DNA of 64,000 bases from Paramacrobiotus metropolitanus (taxonomy: Eukaryota; Tardigrada; Eutardigrada; Parachela; Macrobiotidae): NCBI RefSeq assembly GCF_019649055.1, contig NW_026570252.1, positions 806,001-870,000 on the forward strand, written 5' to 3'. Below, piece by piece: positions 1-54,770 of this stretch. The position numbers and the translations under genes are program-made. The notes under the pieces are model-generated. The model was not told the origin of the DNA, searched no databases, and saw only the letters and a list, made by a program, of their open reading frames with translations. Every line of letters starts with the position of its first letter. The stretch's first letter is position 1.

Positions 1-600
1 TCGCCCATTGTCGTGATTTCGGTCAAAAACACAGCACACCGACAATTTGCTGACTGCTGTATTCCTGACAGACAACTTGCTGAACGACCTTTTGCTGAAC
101 ACCGACACTTTGCTGATGACACATTGCTGACCAACAAAACAACTTTTTTCGCAGCCCACAAAAATTCAAGAATTCTAGGAAACCCAAAGAAAACCTATAA
201 ATGACCTAAGTAAACTTTAGGAAACCTAAATCTAACAAAACCTAAGAAAACTTAAAAAAACCTACGTAAGCCAAAGAAAACCTAAGAAAAACTACGAAAA
301 CGCGTATTTGGACGTAATAAAACGCTAAGAAATCTAAGAAACCCAATTAAAGCACTCAGAAACTAAGAAACCTCGGAACGTGACCGAAAAGCAAGCTGCC
401 GGTCAACAAAATACTTCCCGCAAAAAGTCGGACAACAAAAGTGGGCAATAATGCAGAAGTGGGCCAGAGTTGCATGGATACATGTTTATTTTGTATTGTG
501 GGGGGGAGGACCCTGGAATATCTAATGCGCAGCTTGCGACACTGCGGCAGGCTGCAACACTGCGGCAGACTGCGAAACTGCGGCAGGCTGCGACATATAA
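1..600 (+). repeat. Left terminal inverted array of the Merlin-type element
   Basis: Three blocks: about five degenerate TTTGCTGAC/TTGCTGAAC motifs at 40-130; a purine-rich degenerate AAACCTAAG tract at 175-380; and from about 440 the TGCAGAAGTGGGCCA stretch, a G run and an ACTGCGGCAGGCTGC minisatellite (540-595). Blocks one and three match the right end in inverted orientation. The AAACCTAAG tract has no counterpart on the right. Confidence 0.65.
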
Positions 601-819
601 AATTAATAGCATACTAATATTATATTATGACGACTGTCTGGTGACCTTTTATATATTGACTTTTATATATTGACCTTTTATATTACCATAATACCGGCCA
701 TTTTAGGGTGCTGCTAGTTTTATTTTATTTCAGAGTTCTTATAGCTAGACATTTTCATAGATAGATAAATGTTTTCCGCGTTAAGACAACCCGTAAGAAA
801 ATGCATCAACAATTGTTTT

Positions 820-2685
820 CTAATAAATATTTAGCCCAGGTGGATAACCTTCGTCGTCGGGGACTATCCGTTTTGTGCCATGTGGTTGAGGTGCAGTAGG
901 GTGGTTGTAAGGGTTTTGACGCTTCAGTTCTTCAATTGTTTCGTTTAATTCCCGCCTTTTTGATGGAGGCAATGCAAAATCTGCATTATAAGCAGATTCA
1001 TACGCTGTAAACATAAGGCCGAAAGTGTTAACAGACTGCTTATCAACTTTATTTGGGGGACACTTGTACAACACATTTGCTTCCTTTCCGCTGGACATCA
1101 GAAACGGTTTCATAGTTCCAATACCAATTTCGTGCATTTGTTGGGCTGCATCAGAGAATTCTGCCTCTGTTAACCGCACAAACGCTTTCCGGGATCCAAA
1201 TGTATCGTTATAGATGCGGCATGTTACAAACTGCCCGGGTACAAGACCAAGCGAGAAGTTTGACGCTTTGGAAGATGTAGCGGGTCGGATGTTTTCATAC
1301 TCATTGAACGCATCGCCGCTGATATCCGCAAATTTAAATGCTTTTTCCACTGTTTCCAGAGCTATAATATTCGGGATATTGATCGATTTGACTGTGAGCA
1401 TACTGTGGTATGAGGAATCCAAAATATGCTGATCCATCGAAAGCTTCTGTATGTTGTCTTCCAGTTTCGAAATAAAGTCGGACCTGTCGGCAGAATCTTC
1501 GCCATTAGCAATTTTTTGGTTGTGCAAAATCCGCATTCGTTTGACATCAGTAGATATTTTTCCAATGAAATTGAAGGCTTCTGGGGAATAAGTAAGCAAC
1601 AGACCAGGATGTTTTTCCAAATATTCATGTAATTTTTGAAACATTTCTTTCAAATCAACCTTTGGCTTAGGGAGGCATTGCTTAGCTTCTTGGCATTCAG
1701 GTATATCAGTGACAACATTGTCAACTGCCGTGACCAACAGTCTATCCTCCAGGCCATTTCCTGCTGGCCAAGATTTTAATAGACTGCAAAATGGTTGCGG
1801 ATGAAGGCTTCCAAAAAATGCAGAAGATGATCGCGGTAACTTCAGAGATCCGGCGCTTTTGTAAGACACATTAAGGCTTTGACCACCCCAGACCTTGTTC
1901 ATGAGGCTTGCGGCATTTTCTTCTGATAATGTCAGTGTGGCGAGTGTTCCTGCTATTTCATCAGCTACGACGGAACCAAATCCCTTGGTGTCTGTTAGGA
2001 ATGTCCGATATGCTATAAAAATAAAAAAAATTTTTTTGAAATATTATGCTGTAAAAATAAAAATATTTTATTCAATATGCTATAAAAAATAAAAATACTT
2101 GTTATAGAATAACATATTATAATGTATGGTTAAGGTATGAAATTATGTTAAATAATGAATAAAAATTATTTGTAAATTTATATTAAATATACGTAAGTTA
2201 CCTGCAAACGTATGCGGATTATCGTAAAATTTCTTGTTCTTTTTTTGGGAAATTAAATCCAAAAAATCCGTGCAGTAATCTTGAAGGGCAGTGCTTTTTC
2301 CACCACCAGGCTTGCAGACAATGAGCAGATTAATTGCTGGACACTGTTTCTTGTAGTTTTCAGTTATCTGGAGCATCACTTTTTCTGCAGAAAGTGTTGC
2401 TGTTGTTGCGAGCAAAGAGCAATAAATGGCCATCTCTTTTGTCCTGTTTGTTCGAGCATGGTATATTATGCAGTTCAACAAATCCCCGCTGACATAGTCC
2501 TCAACGTGATGGCTAAAATTCTTTATGCACACTTCCTGAACATACTGAGCTTCCTGTTTTGAAACACTGGTCAACTTGCCCTTTGTTAAAGAATTCATAT
2601 TTTTTGCGTAGACGACGTACAAATGGTTGCAAAAGATGTAAAATAAAACGAACACTAATGCAAACAACCGTGCGCTATCTTGCAT
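820..2685 (-). CDS. DUF3987-type P-loop helicase/primase-associated ATPase
   Basis: Two exons, 2685-2202 and 2012-820, join in phase to 558 codons; the intron (2201-2013) has a GTAACT donor and a TATAG acceptor. Walker A (CKPGGGKST, K near residue 130) is in exon 1. Walker B (VVADEIAG, D179/E180) opens exon 2, followed by the pattern FFGSLHPQPFCSLL and GNGLEDRLL. That order (Walker A, DE, then Gly-Ser-Leu-x-Pro and GDGL-x-xR-like motifs) is how DUF3987 proteins look; in bacterial plasmids and phages these often accompany prim-pol primases. Role inferred: unwinding DNA during replication of the host element. Translation could instead start at M30, because the first 28 residues are hydrophobic. 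It is divergent from the primase gene across about 320 bp, so the two probably share a promoter region. Confidence 0.72.
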
Positions 2686-3003
2686 AACAACCGTGCATGT
2701 ACAGTAACAATATTAGTGCTATCGCTACCGCTGTAGTAGTAACAGTGTAGGTTGTACGTGCTTGCTTATTAATCATGATATTATAATAATGTAAGTACTT
2801 GCTAATGTTAAATGCTTAACGTTTTTCTGGCCGCTGCAATGCATGTTGTGCACCCGGCAACGTTAATGTTGGGTATAAACTCCCAGCAGCTAATCCGCAA
2901 CCAACTCAAGTAACACCAATTATAGTTGTATTATACATGTACTGCAAATGTACAGTGTTAATTACTTTTGAAACTGAATAAAATATCTGTTTCAGCCAAG
3001 ACG
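2686..3003. promoter_or_regulatory. Bidirectional intergenic region between helicase and primase genes
   Basis: This 318-bp gap separates two divergent replication genes. It contains ATGTACAGTAA near 2697 and TGTACTGCAAATGTACAGTG near 2937, a repeated TGTACAG motif. No core promoter element is convincing. Shared control is inferred from layout only. Confidence 0.35.
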
Positions 3004-4037
3004 ATGTTGTGGTATTCTAAACTGCTGGACGCTTTAAGTCATGTTGAAGAAAACACTTACGTATTTGCTGAACAAATAAGTATAAAAGGATCCAGAAAGT
3101 TTCTTGTCTGCACGCAAAATGAAATGTTTTCTATAATTGAAGCACGAAAACTGGAAGAACGAGCATTTTACGAAATCGTGCTGTGTGATCATTATTGTAA
3201 ATTCTATATGGACATAGAATTATCGGTAACGGACGGCGTGCACGATAAAAAATTGTTGGATTTATTGAAAGGCATTATCGAATTCGTGTGGGTAAAAAAA
3301 GGAACAAGGAACGTTATCGTTCTCGATGCAAGCACGCAGCATAAAGAAAGTTACCATTTGATATGGCCAAGAGTTTTGGCAGTGGGAAATCGGCAGCATG
3401 CCAGATTTGCAAAGGAAATGGTAGACGAACTGTCAACAAACATAATCTGCTATGCAAGTACTGTGGACCTTTCTGTGTACAGTAAAAATCAAAATTTCCG
3501 TATGTTTTTGTGCAACAAGAAAGCAGCATCCAATCACTTTGCTATTAACCAGTATACATCAGATTGCTATAAAAATATGGGAGATGATCAAATTTTTGTT
3601 AATTCGTTAATATGCGGAGAGCCCGTTGAAACGAGCGTGTCAAAAAGACAACAAGCGTCAGTGCAGAAAATCACCTGCGTGCTTCAGTCGGTCACGGAAG
3701 AATTTTAAAGAACGCAACATGTCTGCAATTTATCGAGATTCTCATAAAATGGCAGTTGCAGTACAATGTTTTGTCTGCAGAATCATTGCGGTTTTCCAAG
3801 CAAAGGGGGGTGCTTTTGTGTATTACCCGTGGACAGCGTTACTGTCTTATCGCAAAAAGGAAGCACTTAAAAAACAATATTTATTTCCTACACGTTCAAG
3901 GAAGCTGCTTCATACAATTTCGATGCACTGATTACATATGCAAGTCTACTGCCAAAGGAATATTTCCTAATTTCAACATTTGCACAGCAGACTGCGAAAT
4001 ACTTAAATGTTTACATTCGGCTTCTCAGGTAGTGTAA
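3004..4037 (+). CDS. PrimPol-like archaeo-eukaryotic primase
   Basis: From ATG 3004 (an upstream in-frame TTG at 2968 is possible) the frame shows the AEP catalytic set: DxE in FYMDIE (D70, E72), SxH in SYHLIW (S116, H118) and the third acidic residue in VDLSVYSKNQNFRMF (D155). A second open stretch, in another frame from about 3630 to 4037, carries the PrimPol/UL52-type zinc knuckle: YC, then KRKH, then NNIYF, then FRC and YIC. Known: PrimPol enzymes prime and extend DNA at stalled forks or in mobile elements. The two parts are joined by a frame change between 3627 and 3708. I found no plausible intron with correct phase, so a one-base frameshift (mutation or assembly error) is likelier. With the helicase it forms a divergent replication pair. 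Confidence 0.7.
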
Positions 4038-4254
4038 TACTTTATGACTGTATAGCAGTTATACCTACGTACTTAATACGTACTCAGCTAATCAAGCTAC
4101 TTGTACATATGATAATACGTAATGCTCAGTAACCTTGACAACTAAAACTGCGTAAAACATAAATTTCGACTTTGCATGAATAAATATTAAAAGAATTTAA
4201 AATATGATAATTTTTAGTTAACTTTGTTAAGTACAGACAGAGGGAAATGACAAA

Positions 4255-5852
4255 ATGAACATTTGTCTGGACGATATAAACCTGCCCAATGATGACCCCT
4301 GTGAGCTTTGCACAGATGCAGCTTTACCGACGGCTGATTTGCCTGTCATCAAGGTTAACCAAGCACTGTTTGGTTTAGTTACCAAAAAATTAATGTTGTT
4401 TTAAATTGAACAGATATTAATTATTGTTAATTTATTATAATGATATATTAATTATTGTTTAAATTAATCGAATATATTCTTATATCATTATTTAGCAAAT
4501 TATAAACGGGGAACCATTTGAAACCGTACTTGTGATAATACGCCATAAAAGGAAAATTGAAGCAACGTGGCTGCTCACCATACAGGATGCATTCAACTTA
4601 ACATCCAGTAATTTTTATAGCACGATTAGTGCACTTACACTTATAGATCGTACTCTGTACTTCAACAGCCAGTATTCAAACATTCGGAAGAATATAGCCT
4701 TCTTTTAATACAGCCCTTAGTTTATTATAATTAATGGCATTCTCTTGTTTTACTGTAACAGATGTGCAGATCGACAAAATGTGGAATGGGCTTATCGAAG
4801 AAACAACGTTACCCCGAGTCGCGAAATTAATGAATGTGAGCGTAATCCACACATCTCCCGAGTAAGAATAATTACACTGATAACAGCTGCGAAAGTGATA
4901 ACAGCTGCGAAACACTGATAACAGCTGCGAAAGTGTTAGTAATAACGTAACCGCCCTTGTAGAGGGTTGCTCGTATTGCTCGGTGGCCCAGATAAGTAAG
5001 AGTAATATAAGGGGAGCCCATATAAGGCAGCATTCGAAGTACGGTATGAAGCAGTACCAATATTCAGCAGTATTTCTATGCAGTACGACTGTACAAGTAT
5101 GCAGTAGTTTTATGCAGTACGAAGTACGAGCTCAATAAATGGATGAAGTTCATTTTTCTTTACGCGGTTCAGCATAGTACACTCTATAAATGTAGTTGAA
5201 ATTTTTAAAAATACTTTGAACCGTTATTTTTATAAAAAACTTTGGATCGTAATGAACAGTGGCAGAACGTGTTTGAATTTTGATGTCTGACGTTTCTCTT
5301 TATTGTAAAAATATTCGCTTATAGGAAATTTCTCTTTATACAAAAACTTGAACTACTTGAAACGCCAATTGACCAAATTCAAAAACAACTCGAACAATGG
5401 GAACCAGTTGGTATCAAAAGAGAGAACTTCCGAGTACCAAAAGAAATGATGATTATTGAATTGAATACGGAATGCACAAGGTAAAAATTTATTCTGACAA
5501 AACTAATTTTTAAATTCGCAATCAGCTAAGTTTCTTGCGCAGTTGTGTAATTAATGGCATCGTATCAAACATCAAAGGTCCCACCAAGTGGTTCAAAGAT
5601 CAAAAGTCCGGTGAATTTTTATCTTTCGATATCACGGACCAAAGCGCCAAGATACGTGGCGTACTGTTTCAAGATACTTTGATGGAATTTTCCGAATATT
5701 TTAAAGATGGAAATAAGCTTCGCATTATTAATCCTCGCGTCCTGGAGAAAAATGTAGACTTTGCTACTTCAGATTACGAGACCAATTACGAAATTCACAT
5801 CAAGCGCACTACAGTAGTGCAGAATTCATCCAAGCGTTTAAAATTTTCGTAG
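4255..5852 (+). CDS. RPA70-like OB-fold single-stranded DNA-binding protein
   Basis: A multi-exon model: exon 1 4255-4353, exon 2 from 4496, exon 3 from about 4763 to 4865 (donor GTAAGA), exon 4 5325-5480, exon 5 5543-5852. Exons 3, 4 and 5 join in phase; the exon 2/3 junction is unsettled, with a donor perhaps near 4608. Exon 5 has the RPA1 DBD-A signature: CVINGIVSNIKG, then KSGEFLSFDITDQSAKIR, VLFQD and a C-terminal DYETNYEIHI strand. Known: RPA1 OB folds coat ssDNA during replication. Only one clear OB fold is seen, so it is much shorter than host RPA1. A solo-LTR-like insertion sits in intron 3. Its role as the element's own ssDNA-binding protein is inferred from the neighbouring primase, helicase and kinase. 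Confidence 0.62.
4878..5177 (+). mobile_element. Candidate solo LTR inside the RPA-like gene
   Basis: A 300-bp block starting TGATAACAGC is flanked on both sides by TACAC (4873-4877 and 5178-5182), a possible 5-bp target duplication. It holds two TATAAGG-like stretches near 5010-5025 and AATAAA near 5136, in the order expected of an LTR. The 3' end reads CATAG rather than the canonical CA, so the borders are uncertain. Its 5' part has three tandem ACAGCTGCGAAA units. Confidence 0.42.
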
Positions 5853-6088
5853 AAAATATTAATGTGCTGCCTGCTACGTTCAGTATTAAATAGCGCTATA
5901 CTGTACGGAACAGTTTTGCATTCATAACGCTTTATGGCATTGTTGCTGTATTGGAACGTACTTGTTATTACTCAACTCTACATTATTAGTGTCATAGAAA
6001 CACTAACAGGTACCGAAATGCTAATACATACTGTAGAAAGAGAATCCTAAATATCCGATATCCCATAATTGCATTCACTGCTGCAGCA

Positions 6089-7177
6089 ATGTCTCCACCA
6101 ATAGTAAGTCCGTTACTCTCACCGTATTACTTATTACTGAAACGTAGAATATGGCATTTTGTATTGTGTGAAAGGTCATAATTGAAGGCAACATTGGATG
6201 TGGGAAATCTAATCTATTGCAGTATTTGAAAACAGACTCCCGGATTCAGGTAGTCTACTGTTGGAAATAAAATTAAAAAAAAACTAACGCCCGTAATGTC
6301 AATTTTTAAGGTTTTTGAGGAACCGATCGAACTGTGGACAACGAAAGACAATAAAAATCTTTTGGTTATTTTCACACTTAACTATGCGCTTATACAACTT
6401 TCTATATTACTAGATGATTTTTAGGAACTTATGTACAAGGAACCTCAGCTGTACAGCTTCGACTTTCAAAATTTGGTCATGGAAAGCATGATGACTCAGA
6501 GGCAACGCCCAGAATCAGGAAAAGTGGTTGTCTTTGAACGATCAATTTTTAGTGCTCGATATGTTTTTGCGGAGAATCTCTACCACAAGTAAAAAATATT
6601 TGAATCTCTACCACAAGAACTCAAGAATCTCTACCACAAGTTCTTGTTTTCTTATTTGCTTATTTTCTTGCAAGTAAAAAATAAGGCTCTCAAAATCCTG
6701 CATGCCGATTTACGTGTGTTCATGATTCCAGTAAAATGCTTACAAATCAGGAGCACGAACAGCTAAACCAGCAATTCAAGGAAAATGTACTGCAGCATCA
6801 TCCGGTAAACCTAATAATTTACATGAGAGTTGACGTTGAAACGTTGCAAAATCGAATTGCTCGTCGAGGACGAAAAGAAGAAGCTTCTGTGACAAAGGTC
6901 ATATTACTAAGAACATTAACAGAAATGTTGATCATAAATGAAGTACTTAAGTACAGTATTACATTTTGCAGACTTATATTGAGCAGCTAAACCATCTTTA
7001 CGACAATTGGCTCCTAAGAAAACACTTCCCTGCTCCCTGTCCCATATCTGTAAATTTGTTGATTGTAAGTTTGGTTTTGATTACTAATAATTGTTTTTAC
7101 AGACTGTAGATGCAACGATGGTTTCAGGAAATTTATACCCGTATGTAAAGGAGAAAGTGTTGCGGGCGATTCTTTAA
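6089..7177 (+). CDS. Deoxynucleoside kinase (dNK/thymidine-kinase-2 family)
   Basis: Seven exons (6089-6103, 6175-6249, 6311-6364, 6425-6588, 6732-6897, 6972-7064, 7103-7177) splice to exactly 214 codons including stop, a normal size for this family. Motifs in order: P-loop EGNIGCGKS; FEEPIELW; the ERS motif in FERSIFSARYVFAENLY; the arginine-rich LID RIARRGRKEEAS; and YIEQLNHLYDNWL. Known: these enzymes phosphorylate deoxynucleosides with ATP in the salvage pathway; viral relatives boost dNTP supply for viral DNA replication. Intron 4 repeats GAATCTCTACCACAAG, the exon 4 end with its donor, three times. It lies between the RPA-like gene and the transposase, so here it probably feeds element replication (inferred). 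Alternatively it is a captured host copy, which the intron-rich structure would suit. Confidence 0.85.
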
Positions 7178-7456
7178 TGTATATTTTGCTAAATAGAAGG
7201 AAATGCTGGAAAAGATATTTCATATGCGTCTTCATATGCGTCTTATGCGTCTTATTTCGTTTTCACATTTTATTATTTCGAACATAAAAATTTGAAATTT
7301 ATACATTTCGAAACAAATCTGCGCCTTTCATCGCCAGTGCAGCGTAACACCATGCCGCAACAACACAACATTTATTTCTGGCTACAGTATCGCGCTGGTC
7401 AAACTCCGATGATAAATACACGTACATATATACAGACTGAGCTATTAAGCATTTAA
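7178..7456. other. Spacer between kinase and transposase 3' ends
   Basis: The two genes converge here. The stretch is AT-rich and includes a short run of TCATATGCGTCT repeats near 7215-7250. No gene seen. Confidence 0.5.
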
Positions 7457-8383
7457 TCATTCTATTTGCAGATCATTATTATAATATTCTCGAATGTGCT
7501 TGATTATGTTTTCAAATGCGTCATTATTGACATCAAACTTTTTACGCCACAAAAATTCGTACACATACGATTCTTTCATATTTTCTGTTGTTCCGGTTGA
7601 AGGAAGCGATTCTTTGAGCCAACGCCACAAATTTTCCACCCGATTCGTGCATGCCCCTGTTATGGGATCGACAAAATTTTGCGAGTGATTAACGGTAAAA
7701 TGATCGTACCCCATATCTTCGATGCGACAGTAGGCTTTCCAACAGTCGCTCATTATCATTGTACCCACTTCGACATGAGCAGCAAGAATTGGTAGTAATG
7801 TTTGAGCACTTCGATCGTTTACGAAAACGATGAACGCGTCCTTTGTCTCTCGACAAATTCCACCAAATGCCCATTGCTTTTTCCTTTCGTTGGACAGCAG
7901 CCTACCTCGATTATATTTTCTCACAGATAACGCTGATTCATCAATCTCAACTGTTTTACCAATACCTCCAATTTTCGATTCTGAAAGAACTTTAAGCATT
8001 TTTGCTTCACATATACTTCGCAACTTAAACTGAGCCTCTACTACAGTATGCCCGCTCACATCCAAATGGAAACACATTTTCTGCTGATTGAACATTTCAT
8101 GTGCCCAAAAATATATCAGCTGAATTGATTTATGTAACGCTAAATGCGATTCTTCAAAAAATGTTTCAAATTTCGCAGAAAACCGTCTGTAAGATGGTTG
8201 ACCACATCTGAATATCCACGGAAATAATGGCCGATCGTTTCTTCTTGTAATATGCAATATTTCTTCATTATGATCCGGGCACACCATTTGTGACCTTAAC
8301 AAACCATGCTCAATACAAAAATTGAACGCATTTTCATCCGAATCATCAATCAGCTTCAAAAAAGGTTTCAATTTCAGTGCCAT
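7457..8383 (-). CDS. Merlin/IS1595-family (ISXO2-like) DDE transposase, intact
   Basis: A single uninterrupted exon of 308 residues. The ISXO2-like DDE pattern is clear: EIDES (D148), then the KYNRGR basic stretch and QWAFGGI, IMSDCWKAY (D213), VNHSQNFVDP, and TNRVENLWRWLK (E250), ending with EFLWRKKF. Known: this fold cuts and pastes DNA at terminal inverted repeats in bacterial IS1595 and eukaryotic Merlin elements. The N-terminal part (residues 30-65, with CPDH and FRCGQP) is consistent with a degraded zinc-ribbon. Absence of lesions suggests recent or ongoing activity. It sits next to the right terminal array and is the only recombinase in the 9-kb block, so it most likely mobilises the whole replication module. 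Confidence 0.9.
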   Translation of the reverse strand: MALKLKPFLKLIDDSDENAFNFCIEHGLLRSQMVCPDHNEEILHITRRNDRPLFPWIFRCGQPSYRRFSAKFETFFEESHLALHKSIQLIYFWAHEMFNQQKMCFHLDVSGHTVVEAQFKLRSICEAKMLKVLSESKIGGIGKTVEIDESALSVRKYNRGRLLSNERKKQWAFGGICRETKDAFIVFVNDRSAQTLLPILAAHVEVGTMIMSDCWKAYCRIEDMGYDHFTVNHSQNFVDPITGACTNRVENLWRWLKESLPSTGTTENMKESYVYEFLWRKKFDVNNDAFENIIKHIREYYNNDLQIE

Positions 8384-8920
8384 GTTTCTTGTTACTGATA
8401 ATTAATAATCATACGGCATACCTACACGTATTCAACAAATTGCCAGAATTCTTTGTAGACAGAATTAATTCTGTTCTACGGCGTGAATCTTATCAGGTCC
8501 GCGCATCTATCTTCCCAGTCGTGCTGCTTCCAGAACCTGGCAACGCTGCAGTGTACAGTCCGGCAGCGCCGCAGACCCGCAACGTCGCAGTCCCGCAACG
8601 CCGCAGTCTCGCAGTCCCGCAACGCCGCAGTCTCGCAGTCCCGCAACGCCGCAGTCTCGCAGTCCCGCAGTCTCGCAGTCCCGCAGTCTCGCAGACCCAC
8701 AGCCTCAGCCGCAGCCTCGCAGCGCCGCTGTCATTTTGGCTGCTTTCTCGCCCCGTAACAATTCCCCACTCCCCCCGTCTTAATATTCTATTATGGCCCA
8801 CTTCTGCACAATTACCCAAAAGTGTAGAAAAGCGAATTGTCGGTCAGCAATCTGTCGGTCAGCAAGTTGTGTCAGTCTGGAACATGTCGGTCAACAAATG
8901 GACAATACCCTTGTGCACGC
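8384..8920 (-). repeat. Right terminal inverted array with CGCAGTC minisatellite
   Basis: From 8560 to 8700 units of CGCAGTCTCGCAGTCCCGCAACGC are repeated. Then a C run, TGGCCCACTTCTGCA (about 8793) and three GTCAGCAA/GTCAACAA motifs to about 8905. This is the left array reversed. Open frames across the minisatellite are low-complexity translation, not genes. Confidence 0.65.
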
Positions 8921-9650: not shown

Positions 9651-12507
9651 TTAAATTTGAAACAAATTATGCAGATCTGGTATAGTGTAGACGTACCCGG
9701 CTTCCACAGGGGAATCATCCAAGGCTGTAGCCATGCCAGTGTACGTATCTATTTCCATAAAGCGCTGATTGTAACCCAAGATATAAATCTTGTGGTTGAC
9801 CACGATGAAGTCTTCGGCAAGACCCACGTTTAAGGGAAGCGCTAGCTCGCGCCATGTATTTCTGCCGACATTCCAGAAACGGAATTTGGAAAATCCGTTC
9901 GTGTCAACGTGTGACCGCTCTGTGAAGATGATTTCTATCGGCTTTATCTGACGGTGATGAGCTGACAACCCACCGCGGCGTAAAGCGGCTGGAGCGTTAA
10001 CCACCTTTTCAACCGTAAAACATCCCACTGTAGGATCGAACAATATCAAGAACCGGTGGTCGAATTTCCAGGCGGAAGGATAAAATACGATAAATTGTTT
10101 TTCTTGTAACTCATGAAGCAGTTGTTCAGCGGATATCCTATTGACAGCAACTGGATCCAAACATTTTTTGATAAGACCGGCCTGGAACTGCGCGTTGCGG
10201 TTGCTGACACAGGGCACGTAGCCATCGACAATCCTGATGACATACTGGTTATTCGGAAGGTTATCTGCAGCTTCGATAACCTTCGCACCTTTTACAAGTC
10301 GTTTTTCCAGCTGACCGCTGGCTAACTGGGCCATCTCCAGCATTATGCAGCCCAAACTCCAAATGTCGGTTTTTCGTCCGGGCGCCTCTTTGCTGTTCTG
10401 CAAAATTTCTTCAGCATCTCTGGGGACATATAGCGTGTCGTGCCGCGTAAATGCGAAACGTCGGCAGAACAGGTGTTATTTTCTTGCATCTGCACGAAAT
10501 CGTCCATGTCACCGATCAGCAGATTTTTCCAACCACCTTCCGCGATTTGTACAAGAACGTTCTCTGGTTTGAGATCCCCGTGAATTATCCCATTGCGGTG
10601 CAGGAAGTCCAGTCCTCGCGCGATGCAAATCACGAACTGAGCAACTATCATATGCCTGTTTAAGAGAGTTTGGTTGTCTTTGGCTTCCCTCAGCAAAGAA
10701 GCGAGATCCCCTGAAAAAATTTAACAGCTGGGACTTATCGAATACTTCGATTTTTTTTCATATTTCAGTCAATTTAAGTATACAGCTTCATATGTTAGTC
10801 ACCGGTCACTTATACCAGCCCCATGTGGCACGCTACTTGAACATCTCCTGCTAATTGCTATAACATGCTTTTTGATTTTTCTTCAGTGGCGCGTCTAGAA
10901 CTTTTTTCACGGGTGGGCCAGCAAACCCTTTTGTGAAATATTCTTATAACGTTAAGCGCTTTGTATTTGATTTTGCCTTTTTAATTGGACTTGGATTAAA
11001 AAATCTCGTTAATAAGGCAAACCTTAGCGGACTTAACTCGCTTATGCGGGCAGGTTCAACGGTTCAAACTTACATCGGTTGACATTTTTCGCGCGAAGCG
11101 CGAAGCCAACGAGCTATTTCGCTGCGAAAATCGCTAGAAATTCTATTTCAAATAGTAGAAATAACTCAAATTTTCTTGTAGCTGAAGGACAAGAAGGTAA
11201 GGCTGCATCATGTATAAAGTTTTAGAAAATGACAACCTTAGCGCGAAGCCGATGCACGCTTTTGATGCGTGGTTTGCTAAATAAAAATAGCTAAGGTATT
11301 GCGATTTTCTTGCGCGAGCACTTTTCAGAGCTTGGTTTTTTGGTTTTTAAATGAATTAGTAATGTGCACACATGCGTGTAAAGTGGAATGCGATGTGCGC
11401 TGTGCTTATATTTCGAGCAGGGACTTTAAGTTTATTTACATATTTATGTGAATGATAAAAGGCCATGCACTTCTGCCGAGCGGAAGTGCATGGCCTTTAC
11501 CTGTGATTATATACGACTAAAACACAAGAGATGAAAAAGTGGGAGACGGTGTGCCTACTATGTAGCGTCCTTGGCAGGCAGATTGCTGCTCACCGGCTGC
11601 TGCTGTCACCTTTCTTCGGTTATGCTACAGTACATTTATTGCACTTTCCTGTATCTCTCAAAGCACAGTGCTTCGACACGATTTACAGTGTATTCTCAAG
11701 TTTTGTAGCTACCACGAACGTTTTACCAAGGGGGGAGTACGTTGGAAAACTGGAAATATATCTGCGACATTCTCAAAGGGGTACCGTTGTGCATTTTGAA
11801 GTACCCAAATCTGCAGTTTACGGGGGGGGGGGGGGCTTTGGCCCCGGGAGCCCCCCTTAAACGCGCCACTGGCTGTAGTCATCAGAACAGAACTGAAAAT
11901 GTTGGAATTCGAAATTTCTGAAATTCGCAAACGCGCAAGAGCGTACTTTCGTTGCAATTCATGTTCGTAGTTTGGTCTTTTCATGGAAATGTCTATGCCT
12001 CGAAATTCATGAGCGAAGTTTTTACTGTGAAAAATATTTTTTTCTGGTAATTTTTGGTCGGGAAATGTAATACCAGGGGACCAAAATATGATAACACTTA
12101 CATACTTGAAGTGACCGCCGATGTACAGTAATGGAGAAGGGACAGCTTGCCTTACCTTGATGGTAATCCATTGCCAACTCCACGGTAGCCCCGACCGACG
12201 CTTTGGTGATGGACACTTTGTGATACATTACGAGATTTTCGTGAGAAAGTTCGGTGAGTCTTTTCAGTTTATTCACGGCGTGCATCAAGCTTTTATGATT
12301 AGCAGCTTTATCTACAGGAGTACAGATCTGAATTACTTTAACAGCCACAACATCGCCTCCGGCATAGTCACCGCGTTTTGTGACCTTGGCTTTGTAAACA
12401 ACACCAAACGATCCTCTTCCAATCAAATCCGCATGAGAGTAGCGATAATGCATTTTACGGCCAATCTTTTGCTTTCTGTCGGCGGTTATAGAGTTGTTGT
12501 TTCCCAT
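9651..12507 (-). CDS. Kinase K1: protein kinase with Kelch-like C-terminus, one frameshift
   Basis: Exon 1 (12507-12156) encodes the N-lobe: glycine loop IGRGSFG and lysine motif VAVKV. Exon 2 starts at 10710 in matching phase and encodes the C-lobe: catalytic loop IIHGDLKPEN (HGD in place of HRD), LIGDMDDF where DFG is expected, and RYMSPEML. Just after this, near 10410, the frame changes by one base and continues with GRKTDIWSLGCIML. The last 130 residues resemble Kelch/galactose-oxidase blades (WNVGRNTWRELALPLN, then IYILGY). ATG 12507 begins MGNNNS, an N-myristoylation-type start; an upstream in-frame ATG at 12615 would add a hydrophobic segment. A hAT-like element fills the intron. The frameshift means either a recent pseudogene or an assembly error. 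Paralogue of K2 at 56111. Confidence 0.72.
10884..11871. mobile_element. hAT-like non-autonomous element in K1 intron
   Basis: Terminal inverted repeats CAGTGGCGCGT (10884) and ACGCGCCACTG (to 11871) fit the hAT consensus YARNG. The right part has a G run and GGCCCCGGGAGCC. No matching 8-bp target duplication is seen. A perfect 16-bp hairpin lies inside at 11458-11498. Confidence 0.5.
11458..11498. repeat. Perfect 16-bp stem-loop within the hAT-like element
   Basis: AAAGGCCATGCACTTC pairs with GAAGTGCATGGCCTTT around a 9-base loop. Too short for a typical miRNA precursor arm; more likely element structure. Confidence 0.55.
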
Positions 12508-12624
12508 CTTATTGTTACGGATACCACTGTCCCGGTGCATTAATCTTGATCTCAAATGGAGGTACAGGGCGACCCAAATACAGTAAACGAGGCTCGTCAA
12601 ACTAATTACGAGCAATTAATTTAG

Positions 12625-12939
12625 GTACGAGGCAAGCGACAACTCTTTCCCATCGCTTCAGTAAATTTTATCACTTCCCTGCTGCATCTTACCGGTGTGC
12701 AGGCGCTCACGTGCTATCGTATCCATTGTAATCAGCGCTTACTGAGCCGGCGATAAAATCTCGCCTGCCGTGCTCTTCTCTGTATTCTTTATCAGTTTGC
12801 ACAATCAACTATAGCTGCAAACCGACGTGAAACGGCTGAAATCAGGCATCACGTGAGCGCCTGCATACGGGTAAGATTCAGCAGGGAAAGTGATAAAATT
12901 TACTAAAGCGATGGGAAAGAGTTGTCGCTTGCCTCGTAC
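12625..12939. mobile_element. Palindromic MITE upstream of K1
   Basis: About 95 bp starting GTACGAGGCAAGCGACAAC at 12625 recurs inverted, ending GTTGTCGCTTGCCTCGTAC at 12939, with a few mismatches. No coding capacity and no clear target duplication. It lies just before K1 exon 1 and may affect its promoter. Confidence 0.6.
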
Positions 12940-13496
12940 ATCAAGCAGAGCGCCCATCCGCGTTTCCTAGCAGAACCGGTATGTTTCGATCTCAATAATT
13001 GATTTTTAAGCACTTACTAGAACTACAGAGCCTCTGTATTATACCTATATGCTCGTACGAAATTATCAACAATCACTATTGCTATATTTTGTGTCATGAT
13101 GTTGTCAACACGATATGTAAGCCACATTCAGCATGCACGTGGCCTGGCGATTGTTATATCTACATTCGCATGATAGTGTTGTCCAATAATTGATACGTTC
13201 GTTTTCAGTAGCACATATCTGCACAAATGGATTTTAAGTTACGTAAAGGAAATGCCGTTCGCTTGATTTAGAAGTTTGATGAAAAACTTTTGTACAACCC
13301 AGCTCCAACCAAATTTATGAGCGAAATCATACCTTTATGTATTCTGATTTAAAGACACCACTATTTTGGCTTTATTCTTTCGCAAAAGTGCCGTTATTTT
13401 ATTTCACAAAAAGGTTTCTTAGGATTCTTAGGTTTTCTTGATTTTCTTAGGTTTTCTTAGGTCTCTTAAGTTTCTCAGGTTTCTTAGCCTTACCAG

Positions 13497-19806: not shown

Positions 19807-22800
19807 TTATCCCAAGTGAAATAAAAATGCACAAAAAAACTGGTAAACAGTGCGATTTGTGATCGAAGCGATGGGACGCAAGTACAGTAATACGGAGCCA
19901 AAGCTAGAGATTCGATATAGGAAACCGATAGCGAGCCCAGTTTTGATATGCGAAGTCTGTACTGCATCAACGTGGCGCGCACCAATACGGTGCTGTATCG
20001 TAACGATATACGCTTTAGAAAGGGGACGAGGCCTAAGGGCTTGCATCAATGTAAAGCTGGAATAAAAAAAGACTCACTTCGGTCACTTACACACAGAAGT
20101 AGGCGCGAATTGCCGTCCATTGCACAGGATAATCCAGGCTGCGCACCCAATGCTGGTGCACGTGCGCCACATTGGCGTAAAGGTCATCACTGACCGGTGG
20201 ACAGTGGGCGTTGACGGTCCACATGAAACGGCTGGCCATGGCGTACATGCCCGTGTCGCAGTGGAAGACCAGGTTGGCCACAGTGATCTGCATCTGGTCG
20301 ATGGCCAGAAACGCCGGTGGGTGCAGCGGAACCATCAACTGTTGCTCCGTCAGCGGTAAAGGCTCGGGATCACCCTGGTGCTCGGGAGACACGAACAACG
20401 CCTGCATGGCGCGACCGAACAGATTGCACAACGTCCATTGGCGGATGATGATGCGCTGGGCGTAATCGCTGAACATAGTAACGTCCAAGGCAAAAAAATG
20501 GATGCCAGCGCAGCCGCCAAAATTGAGGCTGCAGTCGTGCAGGATTAGCAGCGGCAGCCGGGATTTAATGAGCCAGAACAAGTACACGCACGCATAAGAC
20601 AGTTCGCATCCGTCCTGGAGGCTATGGATCGTCAGGCTCTTTGTAGTGGGTCGGATGGAGCGAAACAGCATCAGCAGTGTGGTGGGGTCGCTCACGCTGC
20701 ATTCTGTTGCGCGGGTGCTGCAGAACCGGCAACGCATGATAATGTGCCGCGTGTTGCGCGGATTACTTAGAATTTGCTGCCACACTACGCATACCCTGTC
20801 ACAAATGAAAGGTCATCAGCCGTGTCACGTTTCGGCACAGTTATTTATTGTGCCACTCTGGCCGGATGGATACCGAATAATGATAACAACGAAATACCCG
20901 CAGTACCACATAAAATGCGTCCTCCACAGCTCAACACAACCATGCCGGTTGCTACGCGCTAATATGGCGCGTATGTAACCGTCAAAAACGAACGGTCGTC
21001 TCAGACGACCGCCGGTCGTTTTGGCCTCTTAACCGTCCGAAACGACCGGGGGCCGGCAAAACGACCGCCGTAAATTTTGCCCAGCAAGTTTTTTTTGCGA
21101 TTTTGATTTCAGCCAAAAGGAATAAATTAAATTACATATCCGGTCGTTTTTGCCGGAGTGTAATTTCGTATCCGGGCCATTCTGCCGGATTGTAAAAACT
21201 TGCCGCCTCTGGGTGGGAATTTACCACCTAGATGCAAGCATCTAGCGGTAGTTTACACCTACGTACACATTCCTGGGTGAAAATTTACCACCTGGATCCA
21301 TATCTCAGAGTAGGAATTTACCCCCTAGTTCAGTACATCTGGTCGAAATTTACCACTAAGGTTCACTCCGGCTAAAACGACCGGATACGAATTTACAATC
21401 TGGCAGAAACAACCGGATACGAAACAACACTCCGCCAGAAACGACCAGATAGAATTTACACTCGGGCAGAAACGACCGGATACGTAGCAACACTCCGGCA
21501 GAAACGACCAGACACGAAATTACACTCCGGCGGAAACGACCAGATACGAAACTGCACTTCGGGAGGAACGACTGGATGCGAATTTAAACTCAGGCAGGAA
21601 CGACCGGATACAAAATTTAACTCATGCATTTTCGTTGTATTTAAAAACGCAAAAAAAACTGGGCGGGCAAAATTTACGGCGGTCATTTAGCGGCCTCCGG
21701 TCGGTTCGGACGGTTTAGAGGCCAAAACGACCGGCGGTCGTCTGAGACGACCGGTCGTTTTGGACGGTTACAAGCGTTCCTGCCATTAACATTCTATGAG
21801 GTTCACCTGGTTGTACCTTAGTGCTGTAACCAGCTAAAAATGAGTGTATGATGACGGGGCACATTTTGTTTTATCGGAATCTGCCTATTCTGATTCACAG
21901 TGGACTCCATAAAGGCGGTTACACTCAAACCGCGCGCAACCAGAACCTTATCTGTACGAGTGTTGTTGTCCTTGCCGTTAAAATATCGGTCCTCATGGTC
22001 AGACCGATTGTCCTGTGTAACAACATTTATGGCTTCCACTGTAACTCTGGCCACTCGAGTTGAGATGATTCAAGGCGATACACCACTTTTGCTTCGCATA
22101 CAGTAAAGATAGATATATTACGGTAAAAATAGATATAGACGTGCTCGTAGAAAAAAAAGCGCTCTCTAAGATTGGTGGTCTTTTATTAAAGTTTTTTTTT
22201 CAAAGAAAACCCAGTGTGCAAATAATATCTGTTTCAAAGTCATAAAATTGTGCAAGCTATATGTAAACAGGTCTATCCCGTTTTTTTATGAACTTGTCTG
22301 TGTAACAAAACATAGTCAACGCTGACCTTATCATGGCCGCCTGTGTCCAGAGGTCCAAATGCAGGAGGATCTCCGTCCACAGCGGAGGAATCAAACGGCC
22401 AAAGTCCATGCCTTTCATGGTGAGTGTGGGGAGTGATGGACCGTTCAGCTGCGTGCTGAGCAGGGCCTGGTCGCTGCGATGCTGGTGCAGCACCTGCCAC
22501 AACTTGGTGGTTCTCCATTCGGCTGTCATGATTTCTGCCGGGGCGCTGAGGATTATAAAAGTACAGCTGTCCGTCCCGATGCGGAGATGGAAGCGACAGC
22601 TGTCACGCAGCTTCTTCAGGTACTCGTGACCATTCAAAGCATCACGGAGACGCTGAACGAAACGGTAGCGGTCCGCTGTTTTCTGTAGGACGGCCGACGC
22701 TCCGGGAAATGGGATAACTTGCTTGGCATAATGCAGGTCACTACTGATGTTGGCACGGGGTGTGAGGGCCGACGGTAATTGGACGATGACCTGACAACGG

Positions 22801-26288: not shown

Positions 26289-28319
26289 GGTGTGATGCGA
26301 TCTGCAACCGTTTAGGATTTGTTTAAGTTTAAATCGAATTTTAAGTAGATAGTGCAGCCTTATTTAGGAAAACTCATTAGAAAAATCCCGTTAAGAATAG
26401 CGCGTATGCAAAGCTCGCTGTTTTCTGCAGAGAAACTGGACGCGAGGAGTGAATTGGCGAAGGCCTGCGCGGAGACTCGGATTCTGAGTCCGAATGCCAA
26501 AACTCTGAGTTTGAGTGCTGATTCTACTGAATTCTGTGTCTATAACTTTTTCTGTCACCTGGACAGAAAATTCTGGTACAAGTAGTAATCTTAAGTTTCT
26601 TCGTATCCTAAGTTTGTACGTGATTTCGTGCGCGGTGTAAGTTTCTTAAAAACGAGAATGCTAAGAAAAAATTATTGTTGAAATACGTACTAAGAAAACC
26701 TAAAAAAACGGTACGAGAATGTCTCCAGCGTATTGTGGCGATCTAATCAATTGAGACCACAAAGTTTGTGTACTCGTACGGAAAACTACTAAACAAAGCA
26801 CAGAAGGCGCGAGTAATTTAGTAACGGTTGCCACGGCTCACCCCAGTATTGTTAGCGTAGCATCTCGGTTTCTCTTTCTATCTCGCGTGTTCGCTTCTGT
26901 TGCGAATTAATATTCACTGCCGCAATATAGCAAATACCGACATTAACGGTGTCTCACTGCATCAAGAATTATAATTTTTGTATAATTAGCTAAATTCATG
27001 CAAGTGTTATATGGTGTACAAATTCAGGATAATAACTACACTTTGTATAACTGCGAGAAATTGTTACCACATTGCTGTGCCATTGTTCCCAGGCCCGTTT
27101 TATGATACTTCTGGCAGTGCGCACTGCATCCCATTATGCTTCCGCTATTGGAAAGTGATTGTAAAAAAGTACTTAATAAAGAAGATCTGTAAAAGCCAAA
27201 CACTTTATCACATTGAAAAATGCGTCTTCAATTCGGCTAGAATATCCAGTATTGTATTTGTATTGGCGCCTCGCTAAATTTAAATATACAGTCACGCTGC
27301 CTATGGAGGTAGGTATGTCGGTTGGAAAAAAGCAAAAAGGTGTTACCCTGTGCAGTATAAGAGCTGGCAACCCTAAGAGGAACAAAACATTTGGTTGAAC
27401 CAAAACAATTCGTGCTAATGCGAGCATCCAAGACTTATCAAGAGATTCGCATAGAAATTTAAAGGGTGCACACAGCGGGACTCAAGAAATTAAGGGTTAA
27501 CAGCAAAAATTTCAATAGGTAATGACGCGTAATGTCACTGACGTGATCGGTAATGACAGGGTTGTTTACATGCCCACCCTAGTTATGAGCGTGTCAATCG
27601 ATCCAACAGTCAACCACACTGGTCCGTACCTTTGAATAAATTTGAAAGAAGTGTTAAAAGATAAAGGGATTAGTACGTAACCGACCATCAAAGCAAAGCC
27701 CTTCGGCATTGGGTAAATAAATTGGCTTCTGCACGTAATACGCCGCAACAGTAACACGTATGCTACCATGATAAATTATGTTGCCTTGTTAATATTTATT
27801 CAACATAATGTTATATTATTGTGTCTTGTTTAATACTTATTCAAAAGCAACGAGTAGTTTATATAACAATAAGACTGCGCTCAGAGCGCTGGTATAAAAT
27901 AAAATTGCATAGTAAGAATGATTTATGCCCCATCTATTGCTGTAAGATTTTTCAAAAATCGTTTCTTAGGTTTCTTAGGTTTCTTAGGTTTCTTAGGTTT
28001 CTTAGGTTTCTTAGGTTTCTTAGGTTTCTTAGGTTTCTTAGGTTTCTTAGGTTTATTCGCGAATTAATATGTAAATCATAATAAAATGGCCAGAAACTCT
28101 AATAGCGCCCCGACAAACCCAGCAGTCCAAACCGAACGGTAAAAGAATGTCCGAGAATATCCTACGATTTATGATGCAGACTACAACCATCTGCAATACA
28201 TACATAAATAACAGTAATAAATAACGAAATTCCGGATAAACTGATAACAGGCGCGAGCCAGTCACTCTTGTTCAACTGATGTGGATCTTGTGTGTAATAC
28301 TGCTCCGTCAGCGTGGGAG
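26289..28319. other. Intergenic stretch with telomere-like array, no gene
   Basis: 26,400-27,940 shows only short chance frames. Degenerate CTAAGAAAAC tracts occur at 26590-26720. The segment 28080-28319 recurs beside F3 (32490-32816) and F4 (42470-42760), marking the edge of a duplicated block. Confidence 0.5.
27962..28051 (+). repeat. Ten perfect copies of TTTCTTAGG
   Basis: A 90-bp pure 9-mer array. Degenerate versions of the same unit occur at 175-380, 13410-13490, 26590-26720 and 60830-60890. Confidence 0.9.
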
Positions 28320-54377: not shown

Positions 54378-54770
54378 TGTGACCGGCAATAATGTCCCCC
54401 ATGCCGGACACCGCTAAATTCGTTCCGGCAATAATGTCCCCCATGCCCGACACCTAGCAGTTCACTCCGGCAATAATGTCCCCCATGCCCGACACCGCTA
54501 AATTCGTTCCGGCAATAATATCCCCCATGCCGGACACGACAAATTTTATTGCCGCAATCGGTCCCTACATTATACAACTTTCGCAGTTGGTTTTCACTGG
54601 TAACGCTGTGGTAACGCTAGTGGCAGTTTTTCAAAGGTCACCGATTGACCTGCAAATCAGCTTTTCGTTCTAGGTCCCCCGTGTCACTTTTCTGGCCAAA
54701 GGGTTACCTTTTTGGCGATGGTGGCAGGGGGAACGCGGCAAAAATGTCCGGGGGACATTTTCGCCGGTCA
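54378..54770. mobile_element. 393-bp element with 8-bp target duplication and internal tandem repeat
   Basis: Ends TGTGACCGGCAATAATGTCC and (reverse) TGACCGGCGAAAATGTCC; flanked by CACTCGAC at 54370-54377 and 54771-54778. The left half is four to five units of about 42 bp (GGCAATAATGTCCCCCATGCC). Non-autonomous; superfamily unclear. Confidence 0.75.

What the first reader, a model, noticed from the sequence alone, without database searches (positions are those of the whole stretch)
1..8920. Merlin-type transposon that appears to carry its own DNA-replication and nucleotide-supply genes
An intact ISXO2-like transposase, a PrimPol, a DUF3987 helicase, an RPA70-like OB-fold protein and a deoxynucleoside kinase lie within one block with mirrored terminal arrays. 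Known Merlin elements, as far as I recall, encode only a transposase (sometimes with small extras). Self-synthesising eukaryotic transposons such as Polintons use a PolB and a retroviral-type integrase, which is different. The set here (primase, helicase, ssDNA-binding protein, nucleotide kinase) lacks an evident processive polymerase, so PrimPol itself may extend DNA, or host polymerases are used. A replicative or rolling lifestyle is possible.
Basis: partly seen in the sequence, partly recalled or inferred. Interest (0 to 1): 0.95.

Follow-up and report, generated by a model that had tools for sequence, protein, structure and literature searches.

The report
Tardigrade Merlin transposon carrying replication genes
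A family of recently mobile jumping genes in a tardigrade carries, besides its cut-and-paste enzyme, what looks like its own DNA-copying kit (primase-polymerase, helicase-like ATPase, single-strand-binding protein and sometimes a nucleotide kinase), which could make it a new kind of self-copying transposon.

Summary
The core claim holds, with corrected borders. The window lies in the tardigrade Paramacrobiotus metropolitanus. The element is 444-8816 (8,373 bp): 23-bp imperfect TIRs beginning GG, an exact 8-bp TSD and a paralogous empty site. The outer "mirrored arrays" belong to the repeat it landed in. Inside are an intact ISXO2/Merlin transposase, a PrimPol, a DUF3987 ATPase, an RPA1-like OB protein and a deoxynucleoside kinase. 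Four copies of a sister family (about 72% identical) carry all five genes, each with a different perfect 8-bp TSD, and differ from one another's reference copy by 0.045-0.120% substitutions: the whole unit moved recently. A third lineage (C74, C81) has transposase, PrimPol, DUF3987 and OB pieces but no kinase. Third-codon changes dominate, as under purifying selection. Against it: the transposase frame is split in 4 of 4 sister copies (mostly homopolymer indels, perhaps assembly error); short TIR derivatives, transposase-only remnants and diverged PrimPol/DUF3987 loci without a Merlin transposase also occur. Most likely this is a Merlin transposon that copies itself, or helps copy itself, with its own replication module. 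Mobility as a unit is well supported by sequence; self-replication is inferred.

The parts
436..443 (.). left target-site duplication CAAAAGTG
   Evidence: identical 8-mer at 8817-8824; paralogous empty site on C240 continuous across the junction
444..466 (+). left TIR GGCAATAATGCAGAAGTGGGCCA
   Evidence: 20 of 23 positions match the right TIR; 16 places within 2 mismatches in the genome versus 1 for the reversed control pattern
529..595 (.). left subterminal 18-bp GC-rich array
   Evidence: matched in the sister copies
820..2598 (-). DUF3987 P-loop ATPase, helicase-like by family; NCBI model LOC129588939 isoform X2 (P0122, 513 aa), spliced; Walker A-like CKPGGGKS (motif recalled)
3004..3708 (+). 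PrimPol AEP core; DxE, SxH and D motifs (recalled) invariant in the 5 sequences aligned
3630..4037 (+). PrimPol C-terminal UL52-like zinc-knuckle segment (13.1 bits, below cut-off 21), in a different frame from the core in this copy; in frame with the preceding part in copy C59
4231..5852 (+). RPA1-like OB-fold protein, five exon-like segments (4231-4404, 4496-4708, 4731-4865, 5284-5484, 5514-5852); splicing not shown
   Evidence: all five segments matched in the sister family
6178..6990 (+). deoxynucleoside kinase, several exon-like segments; a further weak segment near 6951-7109
7457..8383 (-). Merlin/ISXO2 (IS1595-type) transposase, intact 308-aa frame; D148, D213, E250 (my reading of the DDE triad) invariant in the 9 sequences aligned
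8556..8702 (.). right subterminal 8/24-bp GC-rich array, mirrored to the left one
8794..8816 (-). right TIR, outer end ...TTACC
8817..8824 (.). right target-site duplication CAAAAGTG

Best explanation
This is an autonomous Merlin-superfamily DNA transposon whose cargo is a replication module. SHOWN by sequence: the Merlin transposase, PrimPol, DUF3987 ATPase, RPA1-like OB protein and, in two of three lineages, a deoxynucleoside kinase lie between the TIRs and have moved together to new sites with 8-bp TSDs, recently in the four-copy family. INFERRED: the transposase excises the element by cut-and-paste. DUF3987 unwinds the element, PrimPol primes and extends it (or primes for host polymerases), and the OB protein coats single strands as RPA does for cellular PrimPol. 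The kinase raises dNTP supply in non-S-phase cells. The element is thus copied outside the chromosomal programme, as an excised form or at the donor gap, before reinsertion. It would be a 'self-synthesising' (at least self-priming) transposon built from parts unrelated to Polintons and casposons.
For: 5 of 5 full-length A/B copies have exact 8-bp TSDs and matches to all five genes. Flanks joined with one TSD align without a gap at the junction to a paralogous repeat on C240. B copies versus C59: 4 of 8,936 (C65), 5 of 8,949 (C154) and 13 of 10,870 (C94, duplicated part counted twice) aligned columns substituted; 13 of 13, 17 of 24 and 20 of 29 indels are in homopolymers. Candidate catalytic residues are invariant in 9 transposases and 5 PrimPols. 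Third- versus second-codon-position changes between A and B: transposase 150:33, DUF3987 183:43, OB 69:9, PrimPol 121:56. A third, diverged lineage (C74, C81) has transposase, PrimPol, DUF3987 and OB matches (the C74 OB evidence is one 24-residue match), C81 bounded by inverted repeats with a 9-bp TSD read by eye. Of 9 ISXO2 places over the Pfam cut-off, 6 lie in elements that also carry PrimPol and DUF3987. Of 11 contigs with a PrimPol hit, 7 have an ISXO2 transposase within 10 kb.
Against: No replication product, excised form or enzyme activity was observed. No processive polymerase was recognised. The kinase is missing from C74 and C81: no hit on C74, and the nearest on C81 is about 24 kb away, so it is accessory. 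PrimPol/DUF3987 occur without a detectable Merlin transposase at C139 and C68, and a solo DUF3987 at C7. In 4 of 4 B copies the transposase match is split between frames, in C154 only near its end; mostly homopolymer indels suggest assembly error but do not prove it. The window's PrimPol has its two parts in different frames. TIRs of C74 were not found. DUF3987 as a helicase rests on family membership; the structure prediction failed (mean pLDDT 34.7) and no PDB chain matched (one chain, E 0.62).
Confidence: 0.6

Rival explanations
1. The replication genes act in repair rather than self-replication: they refill the donor gap or complete integration gaps in non-dividing or desiccated and rehydrated cells, so the element stays a cut-and-paste transposon with improved recovery of the donor copy.
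For: PrimPol is a repriming and damage-tolerance enzyme in animals (recalled); no processive polymerase recognised; dNK supplies dNTPs outside S phase (recalled).
Against: A helicase-like ATPase and an RPA-like protein kept under constraint along with the transposase go beyond gap filling.
Confidence: 0.2
2. The unit is a capsid-less relic of a DNA virus or plasmid-like replicon that gained a Merlin transposase; the PrimPol-OB-DUF3987 cassette is the older replicon and the transposase a later integration tool.
For: Diverged PrimPol+DUF3987 loci (C139, C68) without ISXO2 transposase, with an OB-like frame read by eye at C139. C139's PrimPol matches AEP_C962R (24.4 bits, cut-off 23) and Herpes_UL52 (23.1, cut-off 21); the window's scores are below those cut-offs, and a nematode protein named primase/polymerase also matches AEP_C962R, so this is not specific to viruses.
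Against: No relatives in 4 scans of viral contigs or in phages (DUF3987 only); exon-like gene segments; best PDB matches are DNA-directed primase/polymerase protein, deoxynucleoside kinase and replication factor-A protein 1, which I take to be eukaryotic (recalled); no capsid gene over a Pfam cut-off in the ten frames scanned (one sub-threshold Capsid_N match of 12.9 bits, cut-off 24).
Confidence: 0.12
3. The replication genes are chance passengers (captured host genes without a role for the element).
For: The kinase is lineage-restricted and sits at different places in A and B; dNK and PrimPol show weaker constraint than the other genes.
Against: PrimPol, DUF3987 and OB accompany the transposase in three lineages, with third-position excess in each gene tested between A and B; five of five full-length A/B copies retain them.
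Confidence: 0.05
4. Chance neighbourhood or misassembly: a small Merlin element near host replication genes.
For: None found.
Against: Exact TSDs at five different sites, an empty-site paralog and near-identical 9-kb copies.
Confidence: 0.01

Closest known systems
Merlin superfamily (IS1016/IS1595-related) DNA transposons
   Same: ISXO2/IS1595 DDE transposase, TIRs starting GG, 8-bp (C81: 9-bp by eye) TSDs, short TIR-ended derivatives; TIR and TSD features as given in PMC8101967 (abstract, passages and section 10 part 1 seen)
   Different: 8.4-9 kb (C94 longer through a duplication) with three to four replication genes; PMC8101967 has no occurrence of primase, helicase or tardigrad- in its main text
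Polinton/Maverick self-synthesising transposons
   Same: A DNA transposon with its own replication genes
   Different: Polintons use protein-primed PolB (passage of PMC4046053) and a retroviral-type integrase (recalled); here PrimPol, DUF3987 and a Merlin transposase, no capsid gene recognised
Casposons
   Same: TIR/TSD element with an integrase-type enzyme plus replication genes
   Different: Prokaryotic, Cas1 and PolB (start of abstract and passages of PMC4046053)
Helitrons with RPA-like proteins
   Same: Some carry an RPA70-like protein and a helicase (recalled)
   Different: Rolling-circle HUH Rep, no TIR/TSD (recalled)
Virophage primase-helicase modules and transpovirons
   Same: Small eukaryote-associated elements with primase-helicase genes (passages of PMC3671162)
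   Different: No capsid gene recognised here; no relatives in viral contigs by four scans

Membership tests
Merlin superfamily | DDE_Tnp_IS1595 (ISXO2-like) transposase with DDE triad | tested here: met
   PF12762 65.4 bits, cut-off 27; D148, D213, E250 invariant in 9 sequences; NF033547 IS1595 74 bits, just under its cut-off of 75
Merlin superfamily | TIRs with terminal 5'-GG | tested here: met
   window and four B copies; C81 TIR differs (starts AGTGG if the 9-bp TSD is taken); C74 ends not found
Merlin superfamily | 8- or 9-bp TSD | tested here: met
   8 bp exact in 5 of 5 full-length A/B copies; of 4 short paired-TIR elements 2 exact, C12 7 of 8, C31:717611 none; the 1.3-kb C31:1216764 element none; C81 9 bp by eye
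Merlin superfamily | transposase the only gene (usual content; stated as single gene for the IS1595 family in PMC8101967) | tested here: not met
   three to four further genes between the TIRs
Self-synthesising transposon (functional class) | encodes own replication-type enzymes between TIRs | tested here: met
   PrimPol, DUF3987, RPA-like, dNK by sequence
Self-synthesising transposon (functional class) | self-encoded processive DNA polymerase (PolB in known cases) | tested here: not met
   no polymerase other than PrimPol among the ten element frames scanned against Pfam; the smaller frames were not scanned
Self-synthesising transposon (functional class) | element DNA is actually synthesised by its own enzymes | not testable with these tools
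   needs experiment
Polinton/Maverick | PolB, RVE integrase, capsid genes | tested here: not met
   none over a Pfam cut-off in the ten element frames scanned

The most novel reading that the evidence does not exclude
A new class of self-replicating eukaryotic transposon: a DDE cut-and-paste (Merlin) element that copies itself with a PrimPol-DUF3987-RPA-like module plus, in some lineages, its own dNTP-supply kinase, independent in origin from PolB-based Polintons and casposons, and recently or currently active in a tardigrade; the same replicon cassette may also pair with other or no transposases (C139, C68).
Probability: 0.5. Interest if true: 0.95.

Novelty: new variant of a known kind. Interest (0 to 1): 0.87.

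Why it matters
Cut-and-paste transposons are taken to depend on host replication. A DDE transposon family that stably carries a primase-polymerase, a helicase-like ATPase, an ssDNA-binding protein and a nucleotide kinase would show another route to transposon self-synthesis, without PolB, and a use of PrimPol as a mobile-element replicase. The near-identical copies give material for a direct test in an animal that can be reared (recalled). It also hints how replicons and transposases recombine into new mobile elements or viruses.

Tried and rejected
Outer mirrored arrays (1-443, 8827-8920) as element termini: rejected, they match other genomic repeats and are continuous in the empty-site paralog on C240. 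Rolling-circle reading: no support; TIRs and TSDs fit DDE transposition. Viral origin by close relatives: four viral-contig scans, one prokaryote genome scan with DUF3987 and one phage search with DUF3987 gave none. PHROGs: nothing strong for DUF3987, PrimPol or OB. Structure of DUF3987: AlphaFold model unusable, so no fold search was run. Protein-database homologues: PrimPol profile 2; DUF3987 profile 4, two of them this species, two unnamed ENA proteins at 40-41% identity, with only the 7,998 best candidates scored. C74 ends: not found by two searches. Literature: ten searches listed no paper that by title or abstract start describes a Merlin element with primase or helicase; only open-licence papers were searchable, four papers were opened in part (PMC8101967, PMC4046053, PMC11071193, PMC3671162), and Repbase was not searched. 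PMC11071193 (tardigrade repeats; passages only) has no occurrence of Merlin or Paramacrobiotus in its main text.
Full report
What the window is. The window is contig C32:806001-870000 of a 169.8-Mb genome in 533 contigs. An NCBI protein of Paramacrobiotus metropolitanus (LOC129588939 isoform X2), a eutardigrade, matches the window's DUF3987 gene at 99% and lies on a contig of the same length as C32 (1,283,027 bp).

Borders. The element is 444-8816, 8,373 bp. The TIRs GGCAATAATGCAGAAGTGGGCCA and GGTAATTGTGCAGAAGTGGGCCA match at 20 of 23 positions, and the 8-bp TSD CAAAAGTG is exact. Scanning end pairs around the genes gave 23 with an exact 8-bp repeat; the proposed pair has 3 TIR mismatches in 22, the next best 13. 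Joining 250 bp of left flank (with one TSD) to 120 bp of right flank gives a sequence that aligns across the junction without a gap to C240, a diverged paralog of the repeat that was hit. The element's own GC-rich subterminal arrays are at 529-595 and 8556-8702.

Genes. Transposase (7457-8383, minus, intact 308 aa): PF12762 65.4 bits, and the IS1595 model at 74 bits against a cut-off of 75; D148, D213 and E250 are invariant in 9 sequences that include proteins of Centruroides and Meganyctiphanes. DUF3987 (820-2598, minus): the NCBI model of 513 aa shows splicing; 45.9 bits against 27; Walker A-like CKPGGGKS. PrimPol: a profile of five relatives matches PDB 5l2x (DNA-directed primase/polymerase protein) at E 6.5e-25, with DxE, SxH and D residues invariant in the five; the window's core alone is under the Pfam cut-off. 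Its UL52-like zinc-knuckle part is in a different frame in this copy but in frame with the preceding part in C59, and scores above the Pfam cut-off in the diverged C139 relative. OB protein: segments within 4231-5852, RPA1-like. dNK: segments within 6178-6990, best PDB entry group deoxynucleoside kinase 1j90, insect by recall. No polymerase other than PrimPol was recognised among the ten element frames scanned with Pfam.

Other copies. A sister family B, about 72% identical at DNA level in its best-aligning parts, has four copies: C59:342056-351038, C65:779553-788628, C154:49549-58506 and C94:542509-553399, the last with an internal duplication of DUF3987. All four have matches to all five genes and exact 8-bp TSDs: GATTACAG, AGCGCAGC, TACCCGCC and GAATTTGA. 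Against C59 they differ by 4 of 8,936 (C65), 5 of 8,949 (C154) and 13 of 10,870 (C94, duplicated part counted twice) aligned columns; pieces under 400 bp or under 97% identity were dropped before this count. Indels are 13, 24 and 29, of which 13, 17 and 20 are in homopolymers. The transposase match is split between frames in 4 of 4 B copies, in C154 only near its end. Indels far exceeding substitutions and concentrating in homopolymers look like long-read error in repeats, so these split frames need not be real; I cannot prove this. The near identity points to recent movement of the whole unit.

Gene order differs: in A the kinase lies between OB and transposase, in B between DUF3987 and PrimPol. 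A third lineage (C74, C81) has transposase, PrimPol, DUF3987 and OB matches (the C74 OB evidence is a single 24-residue match), no dNK hit on C74, and on C81 none nearer than about 24 kb. C81's transposase, PrimPol and DUF3987 frames are split or carry stops. The transposase is on the opposite strand to the other genes in C74 and on the same strand in C81. C81 is bounded by inverted repeats (114190-114216 with 123147-123173, plus about 127-bp subterminal arms), and by eye shows a 15-bp perfect TIR with a 9-bp TSD GTACTTTAC. Ends of C74 were not found. Identities to the window, best B copy, C74, C81: transposase 74, 48, 36%; DUF3987 76, 39, 38%; PrimPol 54, 32, 32-35%. C74 and C81 are closer to each other for all three (transposase 59-68%, DUF3987 53-89%, PrimPol 49-70% over the pieces). 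The same grouping for three genes suits common descent of the unit.

Selection. Between A and B the changes at codon positions 1, 2, 3 are: transposase 52, 33, 150 (277 codons); DUF3987 78, 43, 183 (353) and its other exon 18, 10, 62 (138); OB 22, 9, 69 (105); PrimPol 79, 56, 121 (214); dNK pieces 13, 12, 26 (52) and 23, 13, 28 (57). Synonymous sites are saturated or nearly so, so dN/dS values are only rough (DUF3987 about 0.05; the second dNK piece 0.29). DUF3987 and OB are constrained like the transposase, PrimPol and dNK less so.

Results against an exclusive unit. Of 9 ISXO2 places over the Pfam cut-off, 6 are in elements with PrimPol and DUF3987; C150, C249 and a fragment at C31:1224982 are not. 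Degenerate transposase pieces at C110 and C41 have none of the other genes in the 9-10 kb read. Two loci on C56 keep only transposase and OB pieces in the 9-10 kb read. C7 has a solo DUF3987. Of 11 contigs with PrimPol hits, 4 (C139, C68, C91, C29) have no ISXO2 hit on the contig; some of these may be host genes. C139 has PrimPol, a frame I read by eye as OB-like with no Pfam support, and DUF3987, but no transposase was recognised in the 13 kb read. Short elements with the A-type TIRs exist: the TIR pattern has 16 places within 2 mismatches versus 1 for the reversed control. Of the four paired short ones, C6 and C153 have exact 8-bp TSDs, C12 7 of 8, and C31:717611 none. One B-type 1.3-kb element holds a broken transposase piece and has no TSD.

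Mechanism. Shown by sequence: one mobile unit containing transposase and replication-type genes, moved recently. Inferred: cut-and-paste by the DDE transposase; priming and perhaps extension by PrimPol; unwinding by the DUF3987 ATPase; strand coating by the RPA-like protein, echoing the cellular PrimPol-RPA partnership (recalled); dNTP supply by the kinase outside S phase, which could matter in an animal with many non-dividing cells (recalled). Host polymerases may do bulk synthesis. Confidence that the genes serve replication of the element is about 0.6.

Known kinds. By transposase, TIR and TSD it is a Merlin element; by gene content it is unlike the Merlins in PMC8101967 (abstract, passages and section 10 part 1 seen; no primase, helicase or tardigrade in the main text). 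Casposons and Polintons share only the idea of carrying replication genes (PMC4046053, start of abstract and passages). Ten literature searches listed no such element; closed-access papers and Repbase were not searched.

Noticed in passing
window 1-443 and 8827-8920: The target is itself a dispersed repeat with AAACCTAAGA-type arrays and GTCGGTCAGCAA motifs; copies on C240, C136, C159, C161 and others.
   Followed up: partly
L045 (C139:65001-75000) and L048: Diverged PrimPol with UL52-type zinc knuckle, an OB-like frame (by eye) and DUF3987 on one strand over about 11 kb, without a recognised transposase; palindromic ~690-bp repeats between them.
   Followed up: partly
C7:624375-626170 (L037): Solo open DUF3987 annotated as LOC129582396; no PrimPol, OB or transposase match in the 10 kb read: fragment or possible domestication.
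   Followed up: partly
C31:1227256-1227487 (L041): A DUF3987 fragment of the C139 type about 2 kb from a Merlin transposase fragment.
   Followed up: no
window 12620-12944: Inverted repeat with 60-nt arms (93%) plus 39-nt inner arms, MITE-like, beside a frame (12022-12615) that I read by eye as kinase-like.
   Followed up: no
window 27961-28054: 10.4 perfect copies of GTTTCTTAG, the same 9-mer motif as the diverged array at 13412-13487.
   Followed up: no
window 21364-21623 and 54383-54558: 32-bp and 42/84-bp tandem arrays.
   Followed up: no
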